Shown here: piece by piece, positions 6,274 through 21,136 of the stretch
How the letters are laid out: every line of letters starts with the position of its first letter
Position numbering within the stretch: the stretch's first letter is position 1
Assembly (NCBI GenBank): GCA_021781835.1
Contig: JAJXWD010000017.1
Location: 1-46,973 of the forward strand
Length of the DNA stretch: 46,973 nucleotides
From: Pseudomonadota bacterium
GTDB taxonomy: Bacteria; Pseudomonadota; Alphaproteobacteria; Acetobacterales; Acetobacteraceae
Direction: 5' to 3'
Notes under the pieces: generated by a model
Databases searched by the model: none
What the model was told of the DNA's origin: nothing
The model's input: the letters and a program-made list of their open reading frames with translations, nothing else
Translations under genes and position numbers: made by a program

Positions 6274-6565
6274 TCCTCCATAAAATTTACATAATACATT
6301 GATTATATTATCTATTATAGTATCATTTTGAATTTTATCCCACATAAAAACCCTTGTTTTAGCTCAAGCCCGTATATTGAGCATTATGGCGTTGGGCAGT
6401 CTTTGAGCATCGTCCGCCACTGGGTGAATTTCCTCAAATTCCATCCAGAACATAACAAGAACATTCGTCCCAGAGCCAAGTATGGCAGAATCAACCAAAG
6501 TAGGTAAACTTCCATCCATGAGTTAAGCAAGGCCAATGTCTATGAACTGGGACACTCATTAGCCT
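6274..6565. promoter_or_regulatory. AT-rich leader region of the island's left end
   Basis: These 292 bp between attL and the HEPN gene contain no credible gene. The first 90 bp are strongly AT-rich (a run of TATTAT/TATAGT-like hexamers at about 6296-6330) and probably hold the promoter for the HEPN-restriction operon. The octamer TTGAGCAT occurs twice (about 6376 and 6402). I cannot define a unique start site. Confidence 0.35.
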
Positions 6566-7120
6566 ATGAAAAGCATTGATGACGCTCTTCAGCCTGACCC
6601 ATACTGGGTGTCCAGCGTCTGTTTGGATAAGATTACGGGAGAGTTCCGCCCCTGCCAGTTTTCGGATTTCTACGGTGCTCTCCCTGATCTGACCTTGGAT
6701 GAGGCTGTGCCCGCACACATACGGCGCGAGTTCGATGCTGCTTGCCATACGTTCATCTATGCCTGGTTGTCCTATGATTTGGCGACGGTCGGCGAGCATT
6801 ACGCCTATGCGGTGCTTGAAATGGCGTTGAGGGAACGTCTTTCCGTCTCTGAAAAGCCACCACGCGCGCGCGACGGTATGAAAGACCTTCTAAAAGCCGC
6901 TTTCAAAAGAGGCCTCTTGAACGAGAAGGATTACGAGTTCCATGCCATGCCGGATAGCCCGCCACTGTGTCATCTCCGGGATGGTGTTGTGCGTTTGCGG
7001 AACGGTCTTAGCCACGGTCAAATTCACCGCTTCATTCAAGGTAGCGAGATGGCCCTAGAATTATGCCGTGATGTTATTAACAAGTTGTTCGCCTCCTCCC
7101 CTTCAAGCTCCGTCCTGTAA
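6566..7120 (+). CDS. HEPN-domain protein (putative RNase/toxin) next to restriction enzyme
   Basis: 184 residues, no signal peptide or membrane helix. Residues 145-150 read RNGLSH, an exact RNxxxH motif of the kind that forms the RNase active site of HEPN domains. It is preceded by helices with the usual HEPN spacing (EHYAYAVLEMALRERL at 77-92; LRDGVVRL just before the motif). HEPN proteins with this motif typically cut RNA when activated, in abortive-infection, toxin-antitoxin or restriction-linked systems. The gene lies 13 bp upstream of the MmeI-like gene on the same strand, so the two are probably co-transcribed. No obvious MNT nucleotidyltransferase antitoxin is nearby. The family call is from motif and helix pattern only; the exact target is unknown. 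Confidence 0.55.
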   Translation: MKSIDDALQPDPYWVSSVCLDKITGEFRPCQFSDFYGALPDLTLDEAVPAHIRREFDAACHTFIYAWLSYDLATVGEHYAYAVLEMALRERLSVSEKPPRARDGMKDLLKAAFKRGLLNEKDYEFHAMPDSPPLCHLRDGVVRLRNGLSHGQIHRFIQGSEMALELCRDVINKLFASSPSSSVL

Positions 7121-7133
7121 TCAAAGGTAGACG

Positions 7134-9920
7134 ATGCCCCTTTCGTGGAATGAGATACGTGACCGCGCCCTAAATTTCTCCCGTGAATGGGCGAACGAAA
7201 CATCGGAAGACGCGGAAGCAAAATCGTTCTGGGATGCCTTTTTCCAGGTATTTGGGCTGTCCCGCCGCCGCTTTGCCACCTTTGAGGAGCCGGTCAAAAA
7301 GTCGGATGGGCATGGCGGCTATATCGATCTCCTCTGGAAGGGCATCCTGCTCGTTGAACACAAGTCTAAGGGGAAAAACTTGGACAAGGCGTTTAGCCAG
7401 GCCAAGGATTACTTTCCAGGCCTGAAGGATAATGACCTTCCCCGGTACATCATCGTTTCCGATTTCGATCGCTTCCGGCTTTATGATCTGGAAGAAGGCA
7501 CACAAGAAAATTTTGCTCTCAAAGATTTCTACAAGAACGTAAAGCTGTTCGGCTTCATCGCGGGATACCAGACAACTAAATTCAAGGCCCAAGATCCAGT
7601 TAATGTCGAAGCTGCGGAGCGGATGGGTAAGCTCCATGATCGCTTGAAAGAGTCCGGTTATGAGGGGCATCAGCTCGAGGTCTATCTTGTCCGCCTCCTC
7701 TTCTGTTTGTTCGCGGAAGACACCAGTATTTTTGAGCGTCGTCAGTTTCAGGATTTGATCGAGCAGCGGACTAGGGAAGATGGTCAAGATTTGGCTCAAT
7801 GGCTGGAAACTCTTTTCCAGGTCTTGAATACTGAGGAAACCAAGCGTCTCAAAACTCATGATGAGCAATTAAAGGAATTCCCCTACGTCAACGGAAACCT
7901 CTTTGGGGAGCGTCTTGCTACAGCTGGCTTCAATCGGGAGATGAGAGATATTCTCCTTGAATGCTGCGCCCTTGATTGGAGTAAAATCTCTCCAGCTATT
8001 TTTGGCGCCCTCTTTCAATCCGTCATGGACCCAAAACTTCGGCGAAATCTCGGGGCGCACTACACCTCAGAGCAAAACATCCTGAAGGTCATTAAGCCCC
8101 TATTTCTAGAGGAGCTTTGGAATGAGTTCGAAAAAACTAAGGGCAATAAAAGAAAGCTGTTGGAGTTTCATCAGAAACTTGCCAAGCTAACCTTTCTTGA
8201 CCCCGCCTGCGGCTGTGGTAACTTCCTTGTTATAGCATACCGCGAATTGCGGCAGCTTGAATTAGAGATATTGCGTGTCCTTTACCCGCGTGCTGGGGTT
8301 GGCAGTACCATGCCCGGCGCACGGCAAACTTCTATAGATATTGCTCACGAAGTCCAATGCGATGTAGATCAATTCTATGGGATAGAAATCGAAGAATTTC
8401 CCGCTCAAATTGCCGCTACTGCTTTGTGGCTAATGGACCATCAAATGAACATGAAGGTCTCTGAGGAGTTTGGACTATATTATCGCCGCCTCCCTTTGAG
8501 AAAGTCGGCCACGATTAAAAACAAAAATGCTCTCAATTATGATTGGCATGATATTATCCAGCCACAGAACCTAAATTTCATTTTCGGCAACCCACCATTC
8601 GTGGGTGCAAAAATTATGAATGACACTCAGCGTAAGGAAATGGCTGATGTCTTCGGGAGGGTGAAAGGGGCAAAGCTTCTAGACTATGTAGCCGGTTGGT
8701 ACAAAAAGGCTGCGGACTATATGGAAGAAAATAAGGAAATCCGAACAGCCTTTGTGTCCACAAATTCGATATCTCAAGGGGAACAGGTCGGCGCGCTTTG
8801 GACATACCTCTTGAGTAAAGGAGCACATATTTTCTTTGGTCATCGTACTTTCCGCTGGTCTAATGAGGCCAGTGGCATGGCGGCTGTTCATTGCGTTATT
8901 ATCGGCTTCTCTCTCAGCAGCCTTGCAATTCCAAAGCGGATATTTGAATACGAAACTCCTCAATCGGAAGCGCACGAAGTCTCTGCTAAGAATATTAATC
9001 CTTACCTTGCGGATGCCGACGATATCCTAATTGTCCGGCGATCTTCGCCTCTTTGTGATGTTCCAGAAATTAGATTTGGTAATCAGCCTATAGATGGCGG
9101 ACATTTGCTCATGGAGCCAGATGAAAAAATCGAATTTCTTAAAAAGGAACCGGACGCAAAGAAATTCATTCGACGGTATGTTGGTTCGGAAGAATTCATC
9201 AACAACGTCGAGCGTTGGTGCCTGTGGTTGGTGAATGCCAAGCCAAGCGACATTAACTCCTTGCCGCTAGTCAAGCAGCGCCTCGCCCTCGTTAAAAAAT
9301 TTAGAAACGAGAGTGAGAGAGAGGCAACCCGGAACCTTGCTTCTACCCCAGCCCGCTTTGCTTTCATCTCACACACGGAAACGTCATACCTCATAGTTCC
9401 AAGCGTTTCCTCTGAACGTCGGAATTATATACCTATTGGCTTTATGCCCTCGGCTGTGATTGCCAGCAATCTCTGCCTCATTATCCCTGGCGCGACCCTT
9501 TACCATTTCGGTGTTATCTCATCCTCGATGCACATGGCTTGGGTCCGATACGTCTGTGGCCGCCTTGAAAGCCGATATCGGTACTCAAACACCATTGTTT
9601 ACAACAATTTCCCCTGGCCTACTTCGATTAGTGACAAACAGGCCAAAGCAATCGAGACTGCGGCACAATCAGTTTTAGATGCCCGTTCGGCGTATAAGGA
9701 ATCATCTTTGGCGGAATTGTATGATCCGTTGTCCATGCCAGTTGATCTTGTGAAAGCGCACAAGAAATTGGACGCTGCGGTTGAGGCAGCATATCGGAGT
9801 CGTGCTTTTGCGAGTGACGGTGAAAGGGCGACATTTCTCTTCGATCAATATGAAAAATTGTCTAGTCCTCTTGCTATGCCTGTACCCAAGAAAACAGCCG
9901 TCCAACGCAGGAAAAAGTAG
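7134..9920 (+). CDS. MmeI-like (type IIL/IIG) fused restriction endonuclease-N6-adenine methyltransferase
   Basis: 928 residues, the usual size of MmeI-type enzymes, which cut and methylate DNA with one polypeptide. The N-terminal nuclease shows the PD-(D/E)xK pattern: D65 in GYIDLLWKG and E75-x-K77 in LLVEHKSKG. The methyltransferase has motif I LDPACGCGNF (355-364, AdoMet binding) and motif IV GNPPF (486-489, catalytic NPPF for adenine N6). The C-terminal 350 residues would be the target-recognition domain. Methylation is probably on one strand only, as known for the family. The ATG follows the HEPN gene closely. Base composition is lower in GC than the chromosome, consistent with transfer. 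All key residues are present, so the enzyme should be active; the recognition site cannot be predicted by eye. Confidence 0.88.
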   Translation: MPLSWNEIRDRALNFSREWANETSEDAEAKSFWDAFFQVFGLSRRRFATFEEPVKKSDGHGGYIDLLWKGILLVEHKSKGKNLDKAFSQAKDYFPGLKDNDLPRYIIVSDFDRFRLYDLEEGTQENFALKDFYKNVKLFGFIAGYQTTKFKAQDPVNVEAAERMGKLHDRLKESGYEGHQLEVYLVRLLFCLFAEDTSIFERRQFQDLIEQRTREDGQDLAQWLETLFQVLNTEETKRLKTHDEQLKEFPYVNGNLFGERLATAGFNREMRDILLECCALDWSKISPAIFGALFQSVMDPKLRRNLGAHYTSEQNILKVIKPLFLEELWNEFEKTKGNKRKLLEFHQKLAKLTFLDPACGCGNFLVIAYRELRQLELEILRVLYPRAGVGSTMPGARQTSIDIAHEVQCDVDQFYGIEIEEFPAQIAATALWLMDHQMNMKVSEEFGLYYRRLPLRKSATIKNKNALNYDWHDIIQPQNLNFIFGNPPFVGAKIMNDTQRKEMADVFGRVKGAKLLDYVAGWYKKAADYMEENKEIRTAFVSTNSISQGEQVGALWTYLLSKGAHIFFGHRTFRWSNEASGMAAVHCVIIGFSLSSLAIPKRIFEYETPQSEAHEVSAKNINPYLADADDILIVRRSSPLCDVPEIRFGNQPIDGGHLLMEPDEKIEFLKKEPDAKKFIRRYVGSEEFINNVERWCLWLVNAKPSDINSLPLVKQRLALVKKFRNESEREATRNLASTPARFAFISHTETSYLIVPSVSSERRNYIPIGFMPSAVIASNLCLIIPGATLYHFGVISSSMHMAWVRYVCGRLESRYRYSNTIVYNNFPWPTSISDKQAKAIETAAQSVLDARSAYKESSLAELYDPLSMPVDLVKAHKKLDAAVEAAYRSRAFASDGERATFLFDQYEKLSSPLAMPVPKKTAVQRRKK

Positions 9921-9961
9921 TCCATGTGCGGACGCTGTGCCCAAGCCTGGAAATATGACGA

Positions 9962-10489
9962 ATGACAAACCGTTTGCCGGCGTTAATTGCTGCGACTAAG
10001 ACCTTGGCCACCACGCCGGAGTGGCTGGAATTGGATGACCAGTTCAATTTTACCGTGCCACTGGATATTAACAGCGTCACGCAGATTGGTCTTCGGTTGC
10101 GCGGCAAGTGTAACCGGGATTATCCCGACGAAAATGTCACCTTCCAGATCGAATACCAGTTCAGTGGTATGTCCAAGCTGGTGCCGGTTACTCGTATCGA
10201 CTGGCGGCCTAAGCAGCCGCACCAAAATAAAAATATAGGTCCGGTTGAGTGGCAGTTAAGGCGTTTCCATGTATCCCATATCCATCCTTTCCAAGAAAAC
10301 TACGATTGGATAATTGGCAATGGTCAGCCGCTGGCGGATAGCATAAAGTCAAACCTGCCCATTGCGATACCGCTGGAGACCGATCCCGATGGGGTGGCGG
10401 CTTTGGTGGCGCTGATGGGAAACGTGTTTAATATCAATGGGGTGGGGGCTATTCCGGCTCCCCCGTGGCAGGCCCCGAGGTTGTTGTGA
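9962..10489 (+). CDS. Uncharacterised protein, coupled to downstream DUF1828-like gene
   Basis: 175 residues, soluble, no recognised catalytic motif. It is mostly beta-type sequence (for example VTFQIEYQFSG and VPVTRIDWRPKQPH) with a conserved-looking HVSHIHPFQENYDWIIG stretch. It begins 41 bp after the restriction gene on the same strand, and its TGA stop overlaps the ATG of the next gene (TGATG), so the two products are made together and probably act together. It resembles small proteins of unknown function that I associate with defence islands (possibly DUF6978), but I am not certain of the family. Pairing suggests a two-component module, perhaps toxin and antitoxin; this is inference. Confidence 0.6.
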   Translation: MTNRLPALIAATKTLATTPEWLELDDQFNFTVPLDINSVTQIGLRLRGKCNRDYPDENVTFQIEYQFSGMSKLVPVTRIDWRPKQPHQNKNIGPVEWQLRRFHVSHIHPFQENYDWIIGNGQPLADSIKSNLPIAIPLETDPDGVAALVALMGNVFNINGVGAIPAPPWQAPRLL

Positions 10490-11259
10490 TGACAAGTGGG
10501 TTGGATGAGCGGAGTACGGCATTTCGTGAAGTGGTGGACGGTGTGGCACGCACCTTAGCTGACGCGCGCCATATGAACGGTGCCTCCTTTCTTAGCTTGC
10601 CGGTCATGTACCCCAGCGGCTCGCTGGTGACGGTTCGCATCGAACCCCACAGCGAGGGGCGTTACTTCGTGTCCGACATGGGGATGGGCTTCGAGGAAGC
10701 CGATCTGATGGCGGCAGGGCGGCAATTTGTCCATTCGGCGCCGGGGATTGCTGTGAAGGCGGGGGTTCATCTTGACCGCCAGAGCTTTACCTTGGGTGTT
10801 CGCCGGGAACAGCTTGTCGGCGCTGTTTCGGTCATCGCCGCTTGCTCGCAAGAGGCGGTCCAGCTTGCCGTCTTCAAGCTGGATGAGAAAAAGAGGGCTG
10901 ATGCTGCTGACCGGCTTTGCGAGCGCCTATACCGCCTGTTCACACCGGCCAAGGTGGAACGGGAGGCGACTATCGTTGGCGCATCGAATACAGCCTGGAG
11001 CGTCACGGCGCTGGTGCGGGCCGATGGCCATAAAGCTGTTTACGAGCCGGTTTCGGAGCACCCGAATTCCGTGGCGTCCGTTCTGACGAAGTTTGTCGAT
11101 CTCAACCAGTTGGAACATCCCCCGGCGCGTATCGCCGTGGTGCGGAAGAAGGAACTGCTGGGAACGCGGCTGGCGCTGATTTCCACGGCGGGTAATGTTG
11201 TTGAGGAAAGTGTATCTGATAAGGCGCTAGAGCGGTTGGCGCTGGAGGATGTGGTGTAG
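10489..11259 (+). CDS. DUF1828-like protein
   Basis: 256 residues from the ATG at 10489, chosen because it overlaps the upstream stop (TGATG); an earlier in-frame start at 10465 would add eight residues. The N-terminal part (VMYPSGSLVTVRIEPHSEGRY followed by FVSDMGMGFEEAD) matches the pattern I know for DUF1828, a domain of unknown function found in phage, island and toxin-antitoxin contexts. The second half is a mixed helix/strand domain with no motif I can name. It has no membrane segments. It ends 14 bp from the convergent reverse transcriptase gene, so the region between them has no room for a terminator. Confidence 0.6.
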   Translation: MTSGLDERSTAFREVVDGVARTLADARHMNGASFLSLPVMYPSGSLVTVRIEPHSEGRYFVSDMGMGFEEADLMAAGRQFVHSAPGIAVKAGVHLDRQSFTLGVRREQLVGAVSVIAACSQEAVQLAVFKLDEKKRADAADRLCERLYRLFTPAKVEREATIVGASNTAWSVTALVRADGHKAVYEPVSEHPNSVASVLTKFVDLNQLEHPPARIAVVRKKELLGTRLALISTAGNVVEESVSDKALERLALEDVV

Positions 11260-11273
11260 ATTCTTGGTACGTA

Positions 11274-12566
11274 TCAAAGAGCCTTAAGTTTAGCAATTTC
11301 TCGCTGAGCGGCCTGCTCAAAACGCCTCACCTGCTGGGTAATTTTCTCATCCGCACCAAAAGCCTCTGCGCTTCGCCTGCCGTAAGATGAAAAATTCCGA
11401 AGCGTTCTTAGTGTTCCCTCTTCATTGATTTTGATGTGTGAAAAACGGCGGTAAAGCTTCTTTGTATGCGCCTTGCCAGACAGTCCCGCAGTGGCGCGCC
11501 ACATAGCTGATTTTTTGGCACGCCGTATTGCTCGTCTCATCTTACGCCACTGCCGGGCGAGAGAGCTTTCACGAATTGCCGCGCCAGTTTCATCAAAAGT
11601 GAAGCCGAGATACTGGGCGGCCTTGGTGGCGCGGGGTATGGTTTGCCTCTCCTCAAACCGAGTCTTTTCAGTCTTATGAGAAGCAATTTCTAGTTTCTCT
11701 GCGGCGATCAGGTTTATGATTTCTGTTTCGATAGCCTGCGCGTAATCGGGTTTGCAGATGATGAGAATGTCGTCGGAATAACGTCGGTAGAGCGCGCCGA
11801 CTTGGTCACAACAGGCGCGTGCTGCTACATCGAACTCTATCATATAGAGATTGGAAGCAGCAGCACTTATTGGTGTCCCTTGCGGAATTCCTCGCCGACA
11901 GTCCTTAGTCACTCCAGGATTAGCGTGAAAGACGATCCCCTTTGCTTTCATTTCTTCTACACTGGCAATCCGATCTCGGCTCTTTTCTCTTAGGCGTGCT
12001 CCGAAAACCGGATGAGCTTTCAACTCGTTGAGATCGACATAGTGGAACCGGGTGATAAAGCGGAAAACTTTTTGCCAATCGTCGGTCAATTCCTGAACGT
12101 TGAGCAGAGATTTTAGCCGTCGCTTGAGAAGTGTATGGTCAAGGGTATCAAAGAAGCTTGTAATGTCGAATGCCAAAATGACGGCTGGAGCCTCGGCTCG
12201 TGCAAAACTCATAGCTTCCGCTGCAAAATTATAGTTGGCCTGTCCCAGAGCCCGATAGGCAATCACGTTGTCTGAAATGCCCTTCTCTTTATATCTAGCG
12301 TCGAGCGCTTGGTTTATCTGGTGAGCATAATAGGAAAGGATGCAGGCGTCCCGATGCGAAGCATATTTGATGGGGCGTTCTTTCTGAACAATCGTCCGTG
12401 TCCCAGTCTTCGGACATTTTTTATAACGTGTCTCTGTCTTAGTGTAATGGATGAGCGGCAAAAATATGTGCCGAGATACCATGTCAGGATTCATTACCTT
12501 ATGGGCGAAGACTTTGTTAACGGGCAGGTCGAAGTGCCGATAGCGGCGGGGCTTTAGCCAATCCAT
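11274..12566 (-). CDS. Reverse transcriptase, DRT2-like defence candidate
   Basis: 430 residues from ATG 12566; a GTG lies directly upstream, and GGGAGG stands 8 bases before the ATG. The polymerase core is complete: motif A FDITSFFDTLDH (133-144), motif B GIPQGTPISAAASNLYM (226-242) and motif C RYSDDILII (262-270), a YxDD catalytic box with Ser. There is no maturase or endonuclease domain as in group II introns, and the protein has no obvious fused effector. The N-terminal part (MNPDMVSRHIFLPLIHYTK, RPIKYASHRDACILSYY) fits the UG2/DRT2 class in my memory, but I could not search. The upstream noncoding region has the architecture expected for DRT2, with a promoter and endless frame created by repeat synthesis. 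Alternatives are a retron or another UG class. A defence role by abortive infection is inference. Confidence 0.7.
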   Translation of the reverse strand: MDWLKPRRYRHFDLPVNKVFAHKVMNPDMVSRHIFLPLIHYTKTETRYKKCPKTGTRTIVQKERPIKYASHRDACILSYYAHQINQALDARYKEKGISDNVIAYRALGQANYNFAAEAMSFARAEAPAVILAFDITSFFDTLDHTLLKRRLKSLLNVQELTDDWQKVFRFITRFHYVDLNELKAHPVFGARLREKSRDRIASVEEMKAKGIVFHANPGVTKDCRRGIPQGTPISAAASNLYMIEFDVAARACCDQVGALYRRYSDDILIICKPDYAQAIETEIINLIAAEKLEIASHKTEKTRFEERQTIPRATKAAQYLGFTFDETGAAIRESSLARQWRKMRRAIRRAKKSAMWRATAGLSGKAHTKKLYRRFSHIKINEEGTLRTLRNFSSYGRRSAEAFGADEKITQQVRRFEQAAQREIAKLKAL

Positions 12567-12569
12567 CAC

Positions 12570-12876
12570 ACCTCCCTATTAACGCAGAGTTCGGGGGACT
12601 GACCCTGACCCTGGGTTCCGGTCGAAACCGGGCGCCCCCCGAACGCACGCCACCTTCTGCCAGCCATTGCGTTCAGCGTCTCAACTCCAAACGCCTCGCC
12701 GACACGGGCCTCAAAACGCGAGGTGGTATAGTATAACTGTGGAGGTCCGAGCGATGCTCGATGTCTCACTCAATCTGGCCGCCGTCATGGCGATGCTGTT
12801 CGGCATCGTCGTGCCGGGCGTCAGTATCAAGGTTGACAGTCTCAACAGTCCAACCGCCAAGCCAATTCCTGACGGC
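12570..12876 (-). ncRNA. Putative structured template RNA upstream of the reverse transcriptase
   Basis: A possible promoter on the minus strand is TTGACT (12911-12906), 17-bp spacer, CACTAT (12888-12883; weak), giving an RNA of about 300 nt that ends at the reverse transcriptase ribosome site. Stem-loops in it are 12831-12835 with 12851-12855, 12789-12796 with 12803-12810 (one wobble), 12748-12752 with 12756-12760, and a 9-bp stem 12589-12597 with 12636-12644. The last encloses a CCGGT-TTCG-ACCGG hairpin. GTTGAGAC occurs twice, each time in the loop of a similar stem. This matches the idea of a reverse-transcribed noncoding RNA, but boundaries are estimates. A 67-codon frame (12769-12566) crosses it and is the main competing explanation. 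Confidence 0.45.
12715..12843 (+). other. Candidate 129-nt template unit encoding an endless ORF when repeated
   Basis: On the plus (cDNA-sense) strand the unit holds, in order, TATAGT (12727-12732), GGAGG (12741-12745), ATG (12754) and, at its end, a perfect TTGACA (12833-12838). AAC occurs at 12715-12717 and again at 12844-12846, exactly 129 bp apart. Joining the unit to itself there gives TTGACA, a 17-base spacer (GTCTCAACGCGAGGTGG), TATAGT. All 43 codons are free of stops and the length is a multiple of three, so a concatemer would encode a repeating hydrophobic-helix protein. In unrearranged DNA the same frame runs only 57 codons from ATG 12754 to 12927 and lacks a -35 box. The unit boundaries are inferred from microhomology and coding logic, not observed. 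Confidence 0.5.
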
Positions 12877-12959
12877 AAGAACATAGTGGGAACAAATTGT
12901 TTCCGAGTCAAGGGTTATATTGCATAAATCGATACCGCAACGAGATGGCCGGAAAGCAG

Positions 12960-15722
12960 TTATAAGCCCATTCCTATGGATGCCGCCGTACTGTTTACCA
13001 TGTTAGTGTTAGCCTCCCGCATAAGCGCGGTCTGCTTCTCGCCTGTGCGTTCGGCGATGGCTGCAACCAGCTTGGTCCGGTCATTGGTGTAGACGACGGT
13101 GGTTTCCTTGGCGCGGGACAAAGCAACATAAAAACTCTTTTGGTCGATGAGGTGCGTGGCGGTGCTGTCGGCATGGATAAAGGTGCGCTCGGCGGTGCGG
13201 CCCTGGGCGGCAAAGGCGGTGGCGACATAGGCATGGGTAACATGTTGGTCACGGGGATTGTCGAGCGCCAACGTCTCGACTTTGCTGCTGGCCAGCTTGA
13301 TCGTGGCCTGTCGCGTGGCCGGATCAACGGCGACAATCTCGCCTTGCTGGCCGTTGATCCGCCCCAGCGCGCGGTCATTGCGGGTAAATCGCACCTGGTC
13401 CCCAGCCTGTAGCTCCATCGTCTCGGTGGTGAACGCCTGGGCATGGGAAGCGCCCCACTGCTGGAGCCGCCAGTCGATCATCCTGCCATCCTGGCTTTCC
13501 AGCATGATGGCAGCCTTGGCCGTGTCTATGCCTGCCACCCGGTAGGCTTGGGCCTTTGACACGCCCTTGTCGGCATAATCCTTGGTAAAGCGGATCATGT
13601 CACCAACGGCATAGCTATGAGGGTCTTTGGCCTCGGCGCGGGTCAGGTCGTGCGGCGCAAGCCTGGTGGCCGCTACGGCAGGGCCATGCAGCGCGCCGAT
13701 CTCCGCCAGACGTTGGCGGATTTCCCTGGTCAGCACATCGCGCCCCTCGCGGGATGGTTCAATGACTAGGGCCTTGCGCCTCTCCTTGGCGTCCAACTTG
13801 GTATAGTCCTGGGCAATCTGGGCAAAGCGCGCCTCGCGGCTGTCATGCTCAATGATCCGCCCGCCGCCTGCATCCAGGGCAGCGAGAGCCTTCCTGGCGT
13901 CACCGGCCAGACTGGCCTCCACCGCTGCCTTGGCCTGCTCATTGGTCTGGCGAAGAATTTTTGTCAGGCGGGCAGTTTCCATGCCCGCCCCCTGGAGCTG
14001 GGCAAATGCCGCCCCCGCCTCCACGGAGCCAAGCTGCGCCGTGTCGCCCACCAATAAGACTCTTGCGCGGTGTGACTCGGCTAGGCCGAGCAGTTTGGCG
14101 GCATCCGCTGTTGAGATTAGGGAAGCCTCGTCCACGATCCATAGGCGTTCCCTGGAACTGGGGCGGCCCGGCGCCAACAAATGCCGGGCCAGCGTGTCGG
14201 CACGGGCATCAAGCGCCTCGCCCAAAACCTGCGCCGCCGATGCGGTGGGAGCAAGCGCCGTCACCTGAATACCTCGCGCCTCGGCCTCCCGCGCGGTGGT
14301 CGCCAACACGGTAGAAGTTTTGGCGGTGCCAGCCGTCCCCTGCAAACCGATAATCCGGTTGCGGCTGGTAAGAATTTGCTGTGCCGCCGTCCTCTGTTCA
14401 TCGGTCCAAGCATGGCCGTGCAATGCGCTGCGCCGTTCGGCTTCGGCAACAGTACGGGCAGCAGCGGTGGGAGACAGGATCGGCTCTACCTGTCGGCGCG
14501 CCTGCTCCTCCAGCCGCAACATCGTGGTCTCGTTGGAGATATTGGCGGCGCTGGTAAAACCCTCGAAGGCCACGCCGCGCCGGTCAAGGCATTCGCGCGG
14601 TTGCAACGCGCCAATCTTTTCCGCGCGGGCGGTGGCGGCGGTAATATCACCATGCCCGATGCGCCCCATGCCGAACCGCCCCGCCGCTTCATGTAGCGCC
14701 GTGGTCGAGAACACGGATTGCCGCTCCCCCAACATGGCCGCGCCCTGTGCCACGGCCCGGTCAGCCGCCAACTCGCGGGCAAATTCTTGGTCCACGCCAA
14801 GGGTAACGGCTTCCGCCTGCGCCTCGGCCTGGGCAATCAGATTGCGCCGCGCCTGTTTACCCCACCCGGCTGCATCGGCGGCCTCCCGCCATTCCCCTAC
14901 CAGCTCGGCATGGGGGATAGCTTCCTTGGCCAACCGCGTATCCAGTGCCGCGATCTGTTTCTCGGCGGCGCTGGCCTCGGCCCGGCTCTTGCCCCGCTCT
15001 GCTAGCCGAGCCTCAATCGCGGTACTGCGCTGGCTGAAAGCTTCCAAGGTGTCCGCGCCGATACCGGCAATCTCAAAGGTCGAATCCTTGCCGCGCTCAA
15101 TCGTGTAGCCAAGGCGCTGCACTTCACTGGCTAACTCCTGCCGGTAGATGGCCCCAAGCTGCTTTTGCAGTTGGTAGAGAACACGGGGTTCCAGGCTGCG
15201 CCATTGCCCGGCCTCATCCTGTGTCATGTTGAGAATGATGTTATGGCTATGAAGCTGCGGGTCGAGCGCCCGGCTGGTGCCGTGCCGGAAGGAAGCGATA
15301 ACCAGATTGCCGGTCGCCTCACGCCGGACAGCACCATCCTTGCGGATGCGCGTGGCCGATAAATGTATTTCTGCCAGGTCCAGCGCGGTTCGTGCCGCCC
15401 GCTCATGCGCCGCGATAAGGCGGCGGTCGCCCGCCACCTCGGCCATGACCGACACGGATTTCGGCGCGCTGAACGTAATGTCCCAACCGGGCCGGTGCTC
15501 CCATTCGCCGTCGCGCATCGTCCCCAATTCCTGACCGGCGACATGCCCCGCCAGCAGCGCGGCGAATTGCTGGCGGTCCACTGCCCCGGCCAGCTTCAGC
15601 GTCTGGGCACCTTTGCCCCGCCATTCCGATGGGGCCAAACCTCCTTCGGCATAATAATCGTCAGCCTCATAATAGCTGGCGGCTTGGGCGGCGCTGGTCA
15701 GCGCTGATATGGTGGCAACCAT
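12960..15722 (-). CDS. MobF-family relaxase-helicase (TraA/TrwC-like)
   Basis: 920 residues from ATG 15722, whose codon overlaps the stop of the coupling-protein gene (TGATG). The N-terminal relaxase domain carries two tyrosine pairs (Y17-Y18, Y23-Y24) that are the expected nicking residues, and the metal-binding HUH triad in FRHGTSRALDPQLHSHN (H147, H158, H160). The C-terminal part is a RecD-type helicase with Walker A GTAGTAKTS (about 461-469) and Walker B LWIVDEASL. The protein nicks oriT, stays bound to the 5' end and unwinds the transferred strand. It is shorter than F TraI but close to TrwC size. Everything needed for activity is visible. It is the last gene of the mobilisation operon; the reverse transcriptase and its RNA region follow on the same strand. 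Confidence 0.92.
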   Translation of the reverse strand: MVATISALTSAAQAASYYEADDYYAEGGLAPSEWRGKGAQTLKLAGAVDRQQFAALLAGHVAGQELGTMRDGEWEHRPGWDITFSAPKSVSVMAEVAGDRRLIAAHERAARTALDLAEIHLSATRIRKDGAVRREATGNLVIASFRHGTSRALDPQLHSHNIILNMTQDEAGQWRSLEPRVLYQLQKQLGAIYRQELASEVQRLGYTIERGKDSTFEIAGIGADTLEAFSQRSTAIEARLAERGKSRAEASAAEKQIAALDTRLAKEAIPHAELVGEWREAADAAGWGKQARRNLIAQAEAQAEAVTLGVDQEFARELAADRAVAQGAAMLGERQSVFSTTALHEAAGRFGMGRIGHGDITAATARAEKIGALQPRECLDRRGVAFEGFTSAANISNETTMLRLEEQARRQVEPILSPTAAARTVAEAERRSALHGHAWTDEQRTAAQQILTSRNRIIGLQGTAGTAKTSTVLATTAREAEARGIQVTALAPTASAAQVLGEALDARADTLARHLLAPGRPSSRERLWIVDEASLISTADAAKLLGLAESHRARVLLVGDTAQLGSVEAGAAFAQLQGAGMETARLTKILRQTNEQAKAAVEASLAGDARKALAALDAGGGRIIEHDSREARFAQIAQDYTKLDAKERRKALVIEPSREGRDVLTREIRQRLAEIGALHGPAVAATRLAPHDLTRAEAKDPHSYAVGDMIRFTKDYADKGVSKAQAYRVAGIDTAKAAIMLESQDGRMIDWRLQQWGASHAQAFTTETMELQAGDQVRFTRNDRALGRINGQQGEIVAVDPATRQATIKLASSKVETLALDNPRDQHVTHAYVATAFAAQGRTAERTFIHADSTATHLIDQKSFYVALSRAKETTVVYTNDRTKLVAAIAERTGEKQTALMREANTNMVNSTAASIGMGL

Positions 15723-17572
15723 CACACCGGCCCCGGTCCAAGAGGCAGGCTCGGGCCAGGGGCCATAGCCTCCTTGTCCTTATTCCCCTTGGCTGCTTGC
15801 AGTCCGCCCCAGAGCGTTTCCACGATGTCCCCCGCTACAAAGCCAGGGTGATGGGCAGGGCCTCGGGCATGGATATGGTCATCCGTCAGCCTGATTCTGG
15901 CGGCGGGTAAGCCGTCCGGTAATAATAGGTAAGCCGTATGCTTGGGCAGGCGCAGCTCGCTTTCCAATACGGCGGGGCGCGTCTCGCGCGTGGTACTCAA
16001 TGTCTGCTGAGGTTTGCCTGTTTTCGGGTCGAGCGTGTCAGCGATGGTGGAGATTTCCACCTCGACCATGCCAATGGTCGCGGATGCCCATTCCCGGCTG
16101 GCCTGGTCAACCAGTTGCAGGAATAGCTTGGTGTTGCAGCACCCAAGCAATGCCTCCGCCCCCTCACGGCCATAACGATCACGCATCAGGTCGATGGTCT
16201 GGAAGGTAAGAATGACGGATGCGCCAAATTTGCGGCCCTCGGGCAATAACCGCGCAAGGTTATCGACGCGCGGCATGTCGGCCAATTCATCGAGAATGAA
16301 CCACACGCGCCGCTTGGCAGCGGGTGCAAGCCCCAAGACGCCACTGGCGGCGCATTCCAGCCAGAGCGCCATGAGAGGCTTCATGGCCTCAAAATAATCC
16401 TCCTTCCGTGGCACAAATATCCAGGGCTTTGGGCCTGGCCGCTCGTCAACCGTCTTTAAGAAGTGGGCAAACGAAAAGCCCGTCTCGCCCTCCCGTGGCA
16501 TGGCGCGCAAAAACATAAGCAGATTGACGGCCATCGACAGCATGAACAGCACGCTGCCGGTGGCGCGGTCGGCCCCTTGAGCGAAGATGCGGGCCGAGGA
16601 TGTATGAGCCAGCCAGCGTTCCAGCTTTTCACGTGGCATGGACTGCAAGGCGTCCAATAAATCCCGTGGGGACCGCCGCCCCTCCTGCCAGAGGGTACGC
16701 AGCACATTGGCGACAAGCATCCGGGAAGTGTCCAACCAGATGTCTCGGTCCTCCTCGCCCGTCTCGGTGATGAGATAACGGGCGATGCGATCGGCGTCGG
16801 CGGGATGAGAAATTTCATCAAATGGATTCCAGAACGCCCCACGCCGGTCAAAGGGATTGAGGATGATGTCGCCGCGTTCGGGGTTATAATAATGAGCGAT
16901 GAACTCCCCCGATGTGTCGTAGATCAGGGCGGTGTCGCCCCGTGCTTCAATAGCGTCCAGGTTCTGGCGCAAGGCAGTGGTTTTTCCGGTGCCTGTGGTC
17001 CCCAGGATGGTTATGTGCCTTGGCTCCAGGGTGTACGGGACAGGGACGTTTCCAAACCGTAGGGGGCAGGCATGGCTTTCCGGCGCGGTCATGCGTGCAA
17101 GATCGTTTTCGTTCACAACCCGCGTACCGGCAATGATGCGGTCGGCCAGCAGTTCTTCTTGCTTTCGGCGGCGGTGATCGGCGGTTATCCATAAACAGAC
17201 ACCGCCGACCCCAAGCCCTATTATGCCACCCAAGGCGAGCTGTTCGGCGAGAGCGATGGCGTCACCGCCGAAGCCCTGGATGCTGGCCAGCTCCTTGACG
17301 CCAATTCGATAGACTTGGCCTTGGTAGGTGAAATTCATCACCGGATCGGCGGGCGTGGCTTTCAGCATGTAGGCTATGAAGCTGGCAAGCGTGTACTCGC
17401 CCACTTCTTTGACCTGTCCGGCGGTGGATGTTGCCCAGCCAAAAAGCAATGCGCCCCCTGCCGCGCAAACGGCGAGCGCCCTGGCGGCGAAGCGGAACTG
17501 GGCTTGCCCGTTGGCACGCTCCCGTGCGCGTAGGGCGTCGGCATGGGCGCGGCGATTTTGCACATTGGCCAT
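15722..17572 (-). CDS. Type IV coupling protein (TraD/VirD4-like)
   Basis: 616 residues from ATG 17572, which overlaps the stop of the MobC-like gene (TGATG). Two N-terminal membrane helices (about 27-46 and 119-140) flank a short periplasmic loop. They are followed by the cytoplasmic motor with Walker A LGTTGTGKTT (about 190-199) and Walker B VWFILDELADMPR (about 420-432). This arrangement is the TraD/VirD4 type: it brings the relaxase-DNA complex to a type IV secretion channel and pumps DNA. No channel genes are in the island, so it must dock to a channel supplied by another conjugative element. Expression is coupled to the genes on both sides. Confidence 0.92.
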   Translation of the reverse strand: MANVQNRRAHADALRARERANGQAQFRFAARALAVCAAGGALLFGWATSTAGQVKEVGEYTLASFIAYMLKATPADPVMNFTYQGQVYRIGVKELASIQGFGGDAIALAEQLALGGIIGLGVGGVCLWITADHRRRKQEELLADRIIAGTRVVNENDLARMTAPESHACPLRFGNVPVPYTLEPRHITILGTTGTGKTTALRQNLDAIEARGDTALIYDTSGEFIAHYYNPERGDIILNPFDRRGAFWNPFDEISHPADADRIARYLITETGEEDRDIWLDTSRMLVANVLRTLWQEGRRSPRDLLDALQSMPREKLERWLAHTSSARIFAQGADRATGSVLFMLSMAVNLLMFLRAMPREGETGFSFAHFLKTVDERPGPKPWIFVPRKEDYFEAMKPLMALWLECAASGVLGLAPAAKRRVWFILDELADMPRVDNLARLLPEGRKFGASVILTFQTIDLMRDRYGREGAEALLGCCNTKLFLQLVDQASREWASATIGMVEVEISTIADTLDPKTGKPQQTLSTTRETRPAVLESELRLPKHTAYLLLPDGLPAARIRLTDDHIHARGPAHHPGFVAGDIVETLWGGLQAAKGNKDKEAMAPGPSLPLGPGPV

Positions 17573-17934
17573 CACACGTCTCCGGCAAGGTTAAGTTGCC
17601 GCGCGAAGGCGGCATTGATTTCAGCAGCGAGGGAGGTATCGTTGGCGTGGGGACCGGCGGCGGCGCGGGCGTACACGTAGGCCGCGCAGGCGACGAAGAG
17701 AGCACGCTCCGTCAGTCTCTCGACATGGGCCAGCCGGGCGCTAATCGCTCCAATCTCTTGGGCAATCTCGGTGGTGATTTGAGATACGGCCTGTTCGCCG
17801 GAGAGCGAGGCGATACCAGCCTTCACGCATTGCTGAAGCAGAGCATAGACCGTGACTTGGTGGCTCTGTGCGGCGTGCCGAAGTGCCTTGTCCAACGCCA
17901 GAGGCAACCGGACGGTGTGCTGGACGTACTTCAT
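17572..17934 (-). CDS. Small mobilisation accessory protein (MobC/TraM-like, likely DNA-binding)
   Basis: 120 residues. The N-terminus (VQHTVRLPLALDKALRHAAQ) fits a ribbon-helix-helix start, and the rest is helical. It is the first gene of the three-gene operon and overlaps the coupling-protein gene. Proteins in this place usually bind near oriT, help the relaxase nick and repress their own operon. The region directly upstream (17951-18031) contains two pairs of GTACTC-type repeats spaced 11 bp apart, a good candidate binding site. Family assignment rests on position, size and the N-terminal pattern. Confidence 0.6.
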   Translation of the reverse strand: MKYVQHTVRLPLALDKALRHAAQSHQVTVYALLQQCVKAGIASLSGEQAVSQITTEIAQEIGAISARLAHVERLTERALFVACAAYVYARAAAGPHANDTSLAAEINAAFARQLNLAGDV

Positions 17935-17950
17935 GGCTCACCCGCCTCCC

Positions 17951-18031
17951 GTACTCGCCCCGTATTCTCAGCCGATTCAAGAATTGCGCGGGATATGAAA
18001 AGCGTTTCGACTCCGTACTCTGATCGTACTC
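17951..18031 (-). promoter_or_regulatory. Paired GTACTC repeats upstream of the mobilisation operon (operator or oriT candidate)
   Basis: GTACTC occurs at 17951, 18015 and 18026, and the variant GTATTC at 17962. Each pair has an 11-bp start-to-start spacing, one helical turn, and the pairs are 64 bp apart. They lie between the MobC-like gene and the divergence from the upstream hypothetical gene, inside the only sizeable gap of the mobilisation module (17935-18147). This is where an operon promoter and oriT would be expected. I cannot identify the nick site. Confidence 0.45.
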
Positions 18032-18147
18032 TTGAAAAGTCTTGTGAAACAGCCGCAGGCCAGTGCGTGCGGTGTGGAGCTTTCATGGGGCCATGCGGCG
18101 GAGCCGTATGGCCATATCTCTTCACGAGGCGTGATGATTGCGGGGTT

Positions 18148-18606
18148 TTACGCATCTTCTGGCCCCCGATGCTGATGTTGGGGGAGGGTTTTCCAAGGGC
18201 CACGATTCGTCTCATCGGCCCAATCCCGGATGGTTTGCTCGATGGCCGTCTTGAGGCGATTATCCAGGTTATGGGCTTCCTGGGATGAGAGGCGTGCGGT
18301 CAGGCCAGGGGCCTCAACCAAGCCCCCGGCGGGGAGGTTGGCTCCCTCTGCCGTGAGTGATGGGCCATTGACCCTGCACAAGGAGACAGTACCCTGGTAC
18401 ATTGTGAGAGGCGGCTCATCCCAACGGTGCCAGAGTGCAACGGCACAGCGATAGGTCTCGCCAATCTTGTCGTCACGGATTAGCCTCTCGACAATCGGTA
18501 TGACGAAATGGGCGATACGGGGGGTGACCCGCACGGTGAAAGTGGCAACATCCTTGGGGAAGTATCGGGTATACAGACGAGCGGCAAGGTTCTGAAAGAC
18601 AGGCAT
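18148..18606 (-). CDS. Hypothetical island protein
   Basis: 152 residues, soluble, no recognised domain. It starts at ATG 18606 behind AGGA (AAAAGGATACCCC). The sequence has a compact N-terminal part (FTVRVTPRIAHFVIPIVERLIRDDK) and a C-terminal helix (LDNRLKTAIEQTIRDWADE). It lies between the AlpA-like regulator and the mobilisation operon, all on the minus strand, so it may assist regulation or transfer. A GC-rich hairpin (18618-18637) sits just before its ribosome site and may influence translation. I do not recognise the family. Confidence 0.55.
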   Translation of the reverse strand: MPVFQNLAARLYTRYFPKDVATFTVRVTPRIAHFVIPIVERLIRDDKIGETYRCAVALWHRWDEPPLTMYQGTVSLCRVNGPSLTAEGANLPAGGLVEAPGLTARLSSQEAHNLDNRLKTAIEQTIRDWADETNRGPWKTLPQHQHRGPEDA

Positions 18607-18617
18607 GGGGTATCCTT

Positions 18618-18637
18618 TTCGCGCGCGCGGGCGCGAA
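18618..18637 (-). other. GC-rich hairpin in the leader of the 18148-18606 gene
   Basis: TTCGCGC (18618-18624) and GCGCGAA (18631-18637) are inverted repeats around a six-base loop. On the minus strand the hairpin ends 11 bp before the start codon and next to the Shine-Dalgarno, where it could hide the site or end transcription from the AlpA-like gene. It has no T-run. Confidence 0.35.
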
Positions 18638-18709
18638 CCGGTGAAGATCAGTGTTGGAAGACGACGGGCGGCCCAGGCTGCTCAAGAGCAGCGGGGCAGG
18701 GTCAACCCA

Positions 18710-18913
18710 TCAGGAATAGGTCTGGGTAGGGAGCCCCCGGAGCCATTGTTCAATCTCGCTGGAACGCCAGCGGATACGTCCCCCGCCGAGAACAACAGGT
18801 TGAGGAAAATCTCGATGCCGCATACGGCGGTAAATAGACGAACGGCTCTTGTAACCAGTCAGTCGCAGTACGTCGTCGATTGTCAGCAGGAGCATCGAAG
18901 CGTTGTCATGCAT
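18710..18913 (-). CDS. AlpA-family DNA-binding regulator/excisionase
   Basis: 67 residues from ATG 18913; an upstream TTG (18985) would give 91 residues, but the extra part does not look like AlpA. The sequence LLTIDDVLRLTGYKSRSSIYRRM followed by FPQPVVLGGGRIRWRSSEIEQWL is a classic AlpA winged-helix (MerR-like) domain. In P4-like islands AlpA proteins activate the integrase or serve as excision directionality factors. It lies between the integrase and the mobilisation genes, the expected position. Tandem TTCAACTGTC repeats just upstream (18981-19012) are probably its operator. Confidence 0.85.
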   Translation of the reverse strand: MHDNASMLLLTIDDVLRLTGYKSRSSIYRRMRHRDFPQPVVLGGGRIRWRSSEIEQWLRGLPTQTYS

Positions 18914-19840: not shown

Positions 19841-20986
19841 CTAATTTGGCACACAATACCGCCCCCATGCCTCCATGACCGCTTTCCTCTTTTCCAGAAG
19901 ATTACCCCGCCGGTAAGCGGCCTCCACCTTATTCCCAATGGCGTGGGCCAGGGCCATCTCGGCAATATCCCCATCAAAATCCGTCTCCTCGGCTACCCAG
20001 TCCCGGAAAGATGACCGGAAGCCATGCGGCACGGCCGCCATCTCCATGTCACGGCAAATCTTGGTCAGGGTCATGTCGGAAAGCGGCTTGTCGCCCCGTT
20101 GGCCGGGGAACACCAACTCGCTCCGTGCCTCTCGGTAGCCTTGCGCCCGCCGGAACACGTCCAGGGCAGCAGATGACAGCGGGACAACATGCTCTCGCCC
20201 CGCCTTCATCCGTTCGGCGGGGATTGTCCATAGGGCATTATTCAGATCAACCTCGCCCCAAGTCGCGCCGCGAATCTCGCCGGACCTGGTCGCGGTAAGG
20301 ATCAGTGCCTCAAGGGCAAGCCTCCCCACCGAGTCCCGCTCCCGGAGCTTGCCAGTGAACGCCGGGACTTCGGCGTAGGGCAGGGCTGTATGGTGCGCCC
20401 TCTTGGCTTTTACCTTGGGCAGTGACTTATTCATGGCCGCGATGGGCAGGGGGATGGTCCGATACCCTTTACCAATCGCCCAATCGACCACGGTGTTGAT
20501 CCGTTGGCGTACCCGCCGCGCCGTCTCGGGCTTCTCAAGCCATATAGAGATGACCGCATCCCGGACATGGTGCCCGTCGATTTCGGCCACGGAGAGATTG
20601 CCCAGGGTGGGGAAGGCGTAGGTTTCCAAGGTGGAAAGCCACTGTGCCCGGTGTTTTTGATTCCGCCAACTCGCTTTGTGCTCGGTAAACACCCGTGCGG
20701 CGGCTTCTTTAAAGGTGGGAATCCCTGCCTCTTTCCGCCGCTCGGCAACGGGATCAATTCCCACCTCAACCTGCATCCGCACCTTTGTGGCGCGATCACG
20801 GGCCAGGGCCAGAGGCACCTTTTTGGCACTTCCTAGCCCCACATCCCGGCGCTTTCCGTCTTTCTGCACCCGGCAAACCCAGGATTTGCCGCCTCTGGGG
20901 CTAATGACAAGGTATAGGCCATCGCCATCGCCATAGCGCCCTGGTTCTTTTGCGGCCTTTACGGAGGTGGCAGAGAGCTTGCCCAT
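19841..20986 (-). CDS. P4-type tyrosine integrase
   Basis: 381 residues from ATG 20986 (MGKLSATSVKAAKEPGRYGD, the usual start of this family); an upstream GTG at 20998 is less likely. An arm-binding N-terminal domain (DUF4102 type) is followed by the catalytic domain with R234 (TATRSGEIR), H321 and R324 (HGFRSSFRDW), H348 (ALAHAIG) and the nucleophile Y358 (EAAYRR). All five catalytic positions are intact, so it should be active. The gene lies 136 bp from the tRNA-Ser 3' end and reads away from it, the standard layout for islands that recombine at a tRNA end. Inverted repeats in its promoter (20990-21022) probably bind Int or the regulator. Confidence 0.95.
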   Translation of the reverse strand: MGKLSATSVKAAKEPGRYGDGDGLYLVISPRGGKSWVCRVQKDGKRRDVGLGSAKKVPLALARDRATKVRMQVEVGIDPVAERRKEAGIPTFKEAAARVFTEHKASWRNQKHRAQWLSTLETYAFPTLGNLSVAEIDGHHVRDAVISIWLEKPETARRVRQRINTVVDWAIGKGYRTIPLPIAAMNKSLPKVKAKRAHHTALPYAEVPAFTGKLRERDSVGRLALEALILTATRSGEIRGATWGEVDLNNALWTIPAERMKAGREHVVPLSSAALDVFRRAQGYREARSELVFPGQRGDKPLSDMTLTKICRDMEMAAVPHGFRSSFRDWVAEETDFDGDIAEMALAHAIGNKVEAAYRRGNLLEKRKAVMEAWGRYCVPN

Positions 20987-20989
20987 TTC

Positions 20990-21022
20990 ATCCCACACTA
21001 ATTACCACATATCATGTGGGAT
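20990..21022. promoter_or_regulatory. Nested inverted repeats at the integrase start (arm site or operator)
   Basis: ATCCCACA (20990-20997) pairs with TGTGGGAT (21015-21022), and inside it CCACAT (21005-21010) pairs with ATGTGG (21014-21019). The CCCACA/CCACAT word therefore occurs three or four times in 33 bp across the integrase start. Such clusters are typical of integrase arm-type sites and autoregulatory operators. Confidence 0.5.
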
Positions 21023-21121: not shown

Positions 21122-21136
21122 GTGGCGGAGAGACAG
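21122..21136. repeat. attR of the island (3' end of tRNA-Ser)
   Basis: GTGGCGGAGAGACAG, identical to 6259-6273. It covers the encoded CCA, the discriminator base, the 3' acceptor strand and the first bases of the T-stem of tRNA-Ser. Confidence 0.9.

What the first reader, a model, noticed from the sequence alone, without database searches (positions are those of the whole stretch)
12715..12843. DRT2-like endless gene hidden in the noncoding region of a reverse transcriptase
Seen directly: the cDNA-sense strand holds TATAGT, GGAGG and ATG at one end and a perfect TTGACA at the other, in the wrong order for normal expression. If a 129-nt unit bounded by AAC at 12715 and AAC at 12844 is repeated head-to-tail, TTGACA comes to lie exactly 17 bp before TATAGT. 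The 129 nt are 43 codons with no stop, so the reading frame never ends. Known: in DRT2, the reverse transcriptase makes tandem repeats from its noncoding RNA, which rebuild a promoter and an endless ORF whose protein stops growth after phage attack. Inference: this island carries a DRT2-type system. The coincidence of spacing, frame and strand is hard to explain otherwise, though I picked the unit by that logic.
Basis: partly seen in the sequence, partly recalled or inferred. Interest (0 to 1): 0.93.

Follow-up and report, generated by a model that had tools for sequence, protein, structure and literature searches.

The report
Hidden endless toxin gene, divergent DRT2
A bacterial reverse transcriptase here very probably copies a stretch of its own RNA over and over to build a growth-stopping gene that does not exist as such in the genome, and it marks the ends of that stretch with a different three-letter signal (GUU) from the ACA known in the studied systems, which helps to find such hidden genes in branches where they had been hard to find.

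Summary
The finding holds. The minus-strand RT (11274-12569) is DRT2: PADLOC Drt2 E 3e-135, NCBIfam NF041746.1 393.4 bits (cut-off 390), best PDB match the solved DRT2. Upstream lies a structured, covarying ncRNA whose 3' part is Rfam RT-13. The 129-nt unit is exact: GUU...GUU bounds in the RNA, 43 codons, no stop, TTGACA-17-TATAGT only across the junction, GGAGG and ATG in frame.

Relatives decide it. Of 9 relatives in the same RT clade, 8 have an aligned open template of 66, 120 or 129 nt; L008 does not fit. A rule taken from this clade, loosened at one point after seeing data, hits 8 of 18 other DRT2 loci (0.003 expected). Then fixed in writing, it hit 4 of 10 unseen loci (0.002 expected): all 4 alphaproteobacterial ones. 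In the window it hits only this locus.

Unlike the studied Klebsiella DRT2: GUU instead of ACA, jump point shifted, RT-13 instead of RT-12 scaffold, and one relative with a 22-codon unit. cDNA, transcription and toxicity are predicted, not shown.

The parts
11274..12569 (-). DRT2 reverse transcriptase, 431 aa (GTG at 12569; the next codon is an ATG, 12566), with YSDD at residues 264-267
   Evidence: PADLOC Drt2 E 3.1e-135; NCBIfam NF041746.1 393.4 bits, cut-off 390; PDB DRT2 9lje/9c0i E 1.4e-60 and 2.2e-60; invariant motif columns in 7 RTs
12584..12877 (-). noncoding RNA of the system, about 294 nt; the 5' end is inferred from the candidate promoter, the 3' end from the RT-13 match
   Evidence: conserved alignment; consensus fold of 8 sequences with 24 of 71 pairs changed on both sides, shuffled mean 8.8
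12584..12650 (-). Rfam RT-13 (RF03017): 3' scaffold part of the ncRNA
   Evidence: 85.9 bits, gathering 69.1, E 3.4e-16
12718..12846 (+). template region read in cDNA sense: predicted 129-nt neo repeat unit, 43 codons without stop, ARWYSITVEVRAMLDVSLNLAAVMAMLFGIVVPGVSIKVDSLN
12844..12846 (+). boundary motif 1 (AAC in cDNA, GUU in RNA), last codon of the unit; analogue of ACA-1
   Evidence: GTTGA invariant in the 8 rows; L147 (not in that alignment) has GUC
12715..12717 (+). boundary motif 2 (AAC in cDNA, GUU in RNA), just outside the unit; analogue of ACA-2
   Evidence: GTT in 7 of the 8 rows; L007 has GTA by the placing
12727..12732 (+). -10 element TATAGT of the junction promoter
12833..12838 (+). 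-35 element TTGACA of the junction promoter (upstream of the -10 only in the concatemer)
12741..12745 (+). Shine-Dalgarno GGAGG of neo, 8 nt before the ATG
   Evidence: sequence
12754..12756 (+). ATG start codon of neo, in frame 0 of the unit
   Evidence: sequence
12883..12911 (-). candidate native promoter of the ncRNA-RT transcript: TTGACT - 17 bp - CACTAT, ending 36 nt before the template
   Evidence: best-ranked pair at 36-37 nt also in L003, L006, L027, L007; third-ranked in L004; weak in L030; not seen in L147 and L029
6259..6273 (+). 15-bp direct repeat of the tRNA-Ser 3' end: likely far end of the mobile island that carries the system
   Evidence: 14-mer first found
21122..21136 (+). 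matching 15 bp at the 3' end of tRNA-Ser (21123-21213, minus)
19841..20998 (-). tyrosine integrase of the island, next to the tRNA
   Evidence: Pfam PF00589, PF22022, PF13356

Best explanation
This is a DRT2 anti-phage defence system of a divergent branch, in an alphaproteobacterium. SHOWN BY SEQUENCE: the RT is DRT2; a structured RNA lies just upstream on the same strand; 129 nt of it are bounded by GUU on both sides; read in cDNA sense and joined head to tail they form TTGACA-17 bp-TATAGT, a ribosome-binding site, an ATG and a reading frame without end; relatives keep this. INFERRED, after the studied Klebsiella DRT2: the RT binds the RNA, copies the template to its 5' GUU, the nascent ...AAC end re-pairs with the second GUU at the template's 3' end, and copying restarts. 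Phage infection makes the product double-stranded, the junction promoter fires, and the repetitive, hydrophobic Neo protein (43-residue repeat) stops growth, so that the infected cell does not release phage. Because in many more distant relatives only AC (GU in the RNA) is shared by both ends, two to three base pairs plus a position set by the RNA fold would guide the jump.
For: RT family. ncRNA: RT-13 match; 24 pairs changed on both sides against 8.8 in shuffles, 94.5% of cells paired against 31.6-42.9% for slid versions. Unit: 7 of 7 loci, placed by the GTT boundaries of the alignment, have lengths divisible by 3 (129, or 120 in L027) and frame 0 open; with L147, L007 and L149, 10 of 10. Promoter: in those 10 the -35 lies 17 bp from the -10 position, the -10 being weak in one (L027: CATATA), while the chromosome has 1-3 of 6 matches upstream of the -10. 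Held-out test: 8 of 18 loci, 0.003 expected. Test fixed in writing before the loci were fetched: 4 of 10, 0.0023 expected. Specificity: one strict hit on both strands of the whole window, this locus; 3 strict hits in 1.95 Mb of strand sequence from fetched viral contigs; 0 of 11 loci with weak matches to other RTs. Host class: alpha_tmRNA in the window's genome, 260 bits, and of 14 control genomes only in Caulobacter. Published mechanism: PMC12039810 (named sections read) and PMC11100668 (parts 1-4 of 8 read).
Against: No cDNA, RNA or protein was measured. The boundary motif is not the ACA of the studied DRT2. L147, 78% identical in the RT, has GUC against GUU, and L007 GUU against GUA, so a strict three-base match is not kept. 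L147 and L027 of the window's own clade fail the strict rule, and L008, inside that clade on the tree, fits neither form. 10 of 18 held-out loci fail it, 6 of them alphaproteobacterial (L008, L009, L013, L036, L150, L156; the last and L150 pass the loose form), and 6 of 10 new loci fail. The rule was loosened at one point (second motif xAC rather than AAC) after part of the held-out data had been seen; with AAC at both ends 3 of the 27 loci given to that check pass strictly, 5 loosely. The lengths 66 (L007) and 132 (L149) were placed with searches that asked for divisibility by 3, so only the 120 of L027 is an independent change of length that keeps the frame. Protein-level selection is not clear: over 6 units codon position 2 varies least (17, against 40 and 27; permutation p 0.008), but position 1 varies more than 3, and synonymous changes are not in excess in frame 0. 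The hydrophobic stretch is no stronger than codon-position shuffles give.
Confidence: 0.93

Rival explanations
1. An ordinary small antisense gene: the + strand ORF 12667-12927 is transcribed and translated from the chromosome, and the promoter and repeat geometry is accidental.
For: The chromosomal ORF is open for 86 codons. In two Rhizobiaceae plasmids annotators called a hypothetical protein from the same ATG (L029 1177-1305, L030 1171-1305).
Against: No -35 upstream of the -10 on the chromosome in 10 of 10 loci (1-3 of 6 matches). Beyond the unit the frame ends after 10 to 81 codons at unrelated places. It does not explain why the rule with both boundary motifs, spacer and frame holds in distant DRT2 loci.
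Confidence: 0.03
2. The RT is a working DRT2 with a structured RNA, but the reader's unit is wrong: it jumps elsewhere, e.g. at the CTCAA repeat (12710-12714 and 12841-12845), giving a 131-nt unit.
For: CTCAA is a longer repeat (5 nt) than AAC in this sequence.
Against: 131 is not divisible by 3 and gives a 19-bp spacer. CTCAA is not kept on the 3' side of the template in L004, L006, L027, L029, L030 (read), whereas the AAC position and the frame are.
Confidence: 0.03
3. A decayed or silent copy: the locus has the parts but no longer works.
For: A near relative (L003, 91%) carries a TGA inside its RT frame, so copies may decay.
Against: Here the RT is full length with YSDD, the scaffold scores above Rfam's cut-off, and promoter, start and frame are all intact.
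Confidence: 0.06

Closest known systems
Klebsiella pneumoniae DRT2 (KpnDRT2; PMC11100668, PMC12039810, PMC12596737)
   Same: RT family; upstream ncRNA of about 280 nt (about 294 here, inferred) on the same strand with the template at nt 29-148 there, about 31-159 here (inferred); antisense promoter rebuilt with a 17-bp spacer across the repeat junction; unit divisible by 3 without stop; ribosome-binding site and start soon after the -10; repeat rich in hydrophobic residues.
   Different: The window's RT is 28-31% identical to the RTs of two relatives of KpnDRT2 on plasmids (H6, H8) and matches the solved DRT2 chains at 200-209 bits; YSDD instead of YCDD; boundary GUU instead of ACA; by my reading the unit ends 8 nt after the -35 instead of 6; RT-13 instead of RT-12 scaffold; different Neo sequence.
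Rfam RT-13 RNA (RF03017)
   Same: The window's scaffold is a member (85.9 bits, gathering 69.1); so are 5 of the 20 loci scanned (L004, L147, L006, L029, L030), and L027 reaches the cut-off; L007 matches below it (55.7 bits).
   Different: The family covers 67 nt of the 3' part only. That it is the scaffold of a DRT2 neo RNA is this report's inference; one search with two phrases for its name found no paper in the held library.
Photobacterium DRT2 on pPHDD1 (L155), a KpnDRT2-like relative with RT-12 scaffold
   Same: 111-nt unit, 17-bp junction promoter TTGACA/TATAAT, open frame: one control that the search finds the known type.
   Different: Boundary ATCT (AGAU in the RNA) instead of AAC; RT-12 RNA; RT 479 bits to the solved DRT2 chains against 208 for the window.

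Membership tests
DRT2 (UG2 defence-associated RT) | RT belongs to the Drt2 protein family | tested here: met
   PADLOC 450 bits, next family 90.7; NCBIfam 393.4 bits, narrowly above its cut-off of 390; PDB DRT2 E 1e-60, next RT 1.5e-6
DRT2 (UG2 defence-associated RT) | Catalytic aspartate pair intact | tested here: met
   YSDD aligned with YCDD of the solved DRT2; invariant in 7 RTs
DRT2 (UG2 defence-associated RT) | Structured ncRNA upstream of the RT on the same strand | tested here: met
DRT2 (UG2 defence-associated RT) | No separate effector gene in the operon | tested here: met
   The next long ORF beyond the RT, 10465-11259, is on the opposite strand; small mechanical ORFs on the RT's strand overlap it
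DRT2 (UG2 defence-associated RT) | Template unit divisible by 3, stop-free across the junction | tested here: met
   129 nt, frame 0 open
DRT2 (UG2 defence-associated RT) | Sigma-70 promoter formed only across the junction | tested here: met
   TTGACA-17-TATAGT; chromosome 1 of 6
DRT2 (UG2 defence-associated RT) | Concatemeric cDNA, phage-triggered second strand, Neo growth arrest | not testable with these tools
   needs cDNA sequencing and phage assays
KpnDRT2-like subgroup with ACA jump motif | ACA at both template ends | tested here: not met
   GUU at both ends
KpnDRT2-like subgroup with ACA jump motif | RT-12 type scaffold and grouping with KpnDRT2-like RTs | tested here: not met
   RT-13 instead; on the RT tree the window sits in a 9-row clade with support 100/100, apart from L155, L162, L163; that RT-12 marks the subgroup rests on one locus
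Group II intron or retron | RT above the family cut-off | tested here: not met
   TIGR04416 71 bits, cut-off 300; NF038233 62 bits, cut-off 235

The most novel reading that the evidence does not exclude
DRT2 systems use at least two jump grammars. The published ACA type is one. The other, '-35, 5 nt, AAC ... xAC, 9 nt, -10' (GU at both RNA ends), is spread over three RT branches, so far in Alphaproteobacteria, and lets Neo be read in branches where annotation had been reported as difficult, with repeat units from 22 to 49 codons. The jump would need only a two-base match, its exact position being set by the RNA fold, and the crossover can move within the promoter spacer while spacer length and reading frame stay fixed.
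Probability: 0.8. Interest if true: 0.68.

Novelty: new variant of a known kind. Interest (0 to 1): 0.62.

Why it matters
The first DRT2 preprint reported that ncRNAs could be predicted in more divergent DRT2 clades but that Neo annotation there was more challenging, suggesting alternative mechanisms (PMC11100668, part 4 read). I do not know whether its divergent clades are the ones seen here. The grammar found here reads Neo units in 12 of 28 DRT2 loci outside the clade it was taken from (L007, a member of that clade, counts among them), with about 0.0006 strict false hits per 420 nt of unrelated DNA. So that question becomes directly testable: which bases the RT needs to jump, how short a toxic repeat can be (22 codons predicted in one relative), and whether the junction rather than the motif is what evolution holds fixed. 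It also proposes a function for the Rfam RNA RT-13, as the scaffold of a gene-writing RT, and by one locus for RT-12.

Tried and rejected
CTCAA as the boundary (131 nt): out of frame, not conserved. Ordinary antisense gene: no promoter, ragged ends. Transmembrane-like clustering of hydrophobic residues in Neo: not above codon-position shuffles (fractions 0.10-0.32 for the 8 units of 120 or 129 nt, 0.73 for L149, 0.997 for the 22-codon unit), so I make no claim of membrane action. Synonymous excess in frame 0: absent. A general rule with any 3-nt boundary motif and a strong -10 hit only 12 of 35 loci, with shuffle rates up to 0.021. Viral contigs: no relative of the RT found by sequence; a 15-base RNA pattern brought in 109 stretches, none with the RT or the RNA by BLAST, used only as background. 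Phylum-wide draw: 1 of 299 genomes at E <= 1e-55, the window's own.

Limits of the rule test: -35, 5 nt, AAC, 9 nt to the -10 and frame 0 come from the window's clade; 'xAC' for the second motif was set after one search had shown held-out rows. The 18 held-out loci include L157 with only 49 nt upstream, the near-identical Calothrix pair L031 and L158, and L007 and L008 from the window's RT clade. In the tree I labelled L009 as AAC-type by eye, though it fails the rule, L150 by the loose rule, and L147 and L027 by alignment; L156, which passes the loose rule, was labelled not-AAC. For the 10 new loci I did not fetch H18, H29, H30/H46, H48-H50 and H53.

Full report
WHAT WAS CLAIMED AND WHAT IS THERE. 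The 129-nt unit, joined to itself, gives TTGACA-17 bp-TATAGT, GGAGG, ATG and a frame without stop. Dinucleotide shuffles of the 420 nt upstream of the RT reach the same score with ribosome-binding site and start in 15 of 20,000 cases. That is unlikely but was chosen after the fact, so I looked for independent evidence.

THE RT. The 431-aa RT on the minus strand (11274-12569) is DRT2: PADLOC Drt2 450 bits against 90.7 for the next family, NCBIfam NF041746.1 393.4 bits with cut-off 390, PDB DRT2 chains at E 1e-60 with the next RT at 1.5e-6. YSDD aligns with YCDD. In its genome the only other match covers 76 residues at E 1.8e-4. The genome has an alpha_tmRNA (260 bits), a family that rang in only one of 14 control genomes, Caulobacter, so the host, and the other genomes labelled as its class, are taken as Alphaproteobacteria.

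THE RNA. Rfam RT-13 matches 12584-12650 on the minus strand. A MAFFT alignment of the upstream regions shows long conserved blocks on both sides of a more variable template. Eight sequences give a consensus fold with 71 pairs, 24 of them changed on both sides; shuffles give 8.8, and slid versions 2-5. A candidate native promoter (TTGACT-17-CACTAT) ends 36 nt before the template, so the template would begin at about nt 31 of the RNA, against nt 29 in Klebsiella (PMC12039810).

THE UNIT IN RELATIVES; 7 of 7 loci (window, L003, L004, L006, L027, L029, L030; RT identity 50-100%) have GTT at both ends and lengths 129 or 120 with frame 0 open. One search adds L147 (129; GUC against GUU), L007 (66; GUU against GUA) and L149 (132), all with frame 0 open: 10 of 10 placed. 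L008, inside the same RT clade, could not be placed. L007 and L149 were placed with searches that asked for length divisible by 3, so of the changes of length only the 9 nt missing in L027 is independent evidence for the frame. Nine of the ten have a recognisable -10 at 17 bp; in L027 it is CATATA. On the chromosome none of the ten has a -35 upstream of its -10, and past the unit the frame ends after 10-81 codons at unrelated places.

HELD-OUT AND PROSPECTIVE TESTS. Rule: TTGNNN (at least 5 of 6), 5 nt, AAC; xAC, 9 nt, -10 (at least 4 of 6); length divisible by 3; frame 0 open. Over 18 further DRT2 loci it hits 8 (L007, L148, L149, L153, L010, L011, L035, L012) with 0.003 expected from shuffles; with a weak -35 allowed, 10 with 0.017 expected. 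Of the 10 strict misses, 6 are alphaproteobacterial (L008, L009, L013, L036, L150, L156) and 4 are not (L031, L158, L155, L157). The xAC element was set after some of these had been seen. The 6 misses are from a desulfovibrio, a Psychrobacter, a Persicobacter, a Lactobacillus and two phage contigs of unknown host. Background: 1 strict hit in both strands of the window, the locus itself; 3 in 1,946,864 nt of strand sequence from fetched viral contigs; 0 of 11 loci with weak RT matches. With AAC demanded at both ends, 3 of the 27 loci given to that check pass strictly (L149, L010, L161) and 5 loosely.

WHERE THE GRAMMAR LIES ON THE TREE. In a tree of 35 RTs the window's clade (9 rows, support 100/100) contains seven more rows read as AAC type plus L008, which does not fit. 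AAC-type loci also make up 10 of 12 and 3 of 4 rows of two other groups, while the group of KpnDRT2-like RTs (L155, L157, L162, L163, with the Calothrix pair) has none; the labels need 6 changes on the tree against 11.2 when shuffled (labelling choices are told under Tried and rejected). In L155, the one KpnDRT2-like control whose unit I placed, the unit is 111 nt with boundary ATCT. By my reading the unit there ends 6 nt after the -35, here 8 nt, both with a 17-bp spacer.

WHAT IS NOT SUPPORTED. Protein-level constraint on Neo is weak in these data. Over 6 units codon position 2 is the least variable (17 against 40 and 27; permutation p 0.008), but position 1 exceeds position 3 and synonymous changes are not in excess. 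The hydrophobic stretch is what the base make-up by codon position gives. The Klebsiella authors likewise ascribed most conserved residues to nucleotide-level conservation (PMC12039810, section read).

LITERATURE. PMC12039810: abstract, outline, sections 6-8 and 10, part 1 of section 9, section 23 and the figure legends read. PMC11100668: parts 1-4 of 8 read and passages found. PMC12596737, PMC12632851 and PMC12483538: passages only. A journal version of PMC11100668 did not appear in the listings. No paper in the held library came up for 'RT-13 RNA' or 'RT-13 motif'; a search for at least two of 'rolling circle reverse transcription', 'DRT2' and 'GUU' gave 4 papers, none holding both DRT2 and GUU. 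That is no proof that it is unpublished.

SETTING. The system sits in a likely mobile island of about 14.9 kb between a 15-bp direct repeat (6259-6273) and the 3' end of tRNA-Ser (21122-21136), with a tyrosine integrase, an AlpA-like regulator, TrwB/TrwC conjugation proteins and an MmeI-type restriction-methylation enzyme.

VERDICT. The system is a DRT2 of a divergent branch with a different jump motif: a new variant of a known kind, made testable by a simple rule.

Noticed in passing
window 6259-21136: Likely integrated mobile island at tRNA-Ser with a 15-bp direct repeat, integrase, TrwB/TrwC, DRT2 and a type IIG (MmeI-like) restriction enzyme as defence cargo.
   Followed up: partly
L007 2578-2643: A relative (46% RT identity) has a predicted neo unit of only 66 nt, 22 codons; the example lengths given for the 42 Klebsiella relatives are 111-129 nt (PMC12039810).
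   Followed up: partly
L029 1177-1305, L030 1171-1305: The plasmid records annotate a 'hypothetical protein' that begins at the predicted neo start codon and runs off the unit; it is probably the unassembled neo frame. In L029 the drt2 gene is annotated from an ATG far upstream, inside the ncRNA region.
   Followed up: partly
L155 1046-1158: Rfam RT-12 matches just upstream of the RT of a KpnDRT2-like system, as RT-13 does here.
   Followed up: no
L008 upstream of the RT: An RT inside the window's clade (38.6%) does not fit the AAC rule; a 78-nt open unit with a 17-bp promoter but AAG/GGG boundaries is possible.
   Followed up: no
L162 upstream of the RT: By eye, a Nitratidesulfovibrio DRT2 may use AGT at both ends, 3 nt after the -35 (sequence); not tested by a script.
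   Followed up: no
L003 2001-3293: The nearest relative (91%, an environmental MAG) has a TGA inside its RT frame while its predicted neo unit is intact.
   Followed up: no
window 1063-1398: Three copies of a 150-nt stretch at 93-nt spacing, 84-87% alike.
   Followed up: no
window 9962-11259 and 6566-7120 (+): Three unknown ORFs beside the restriction enzyme and the RT without matches in Pfam, NCBIfam or PADLOC.
   Followed up: no
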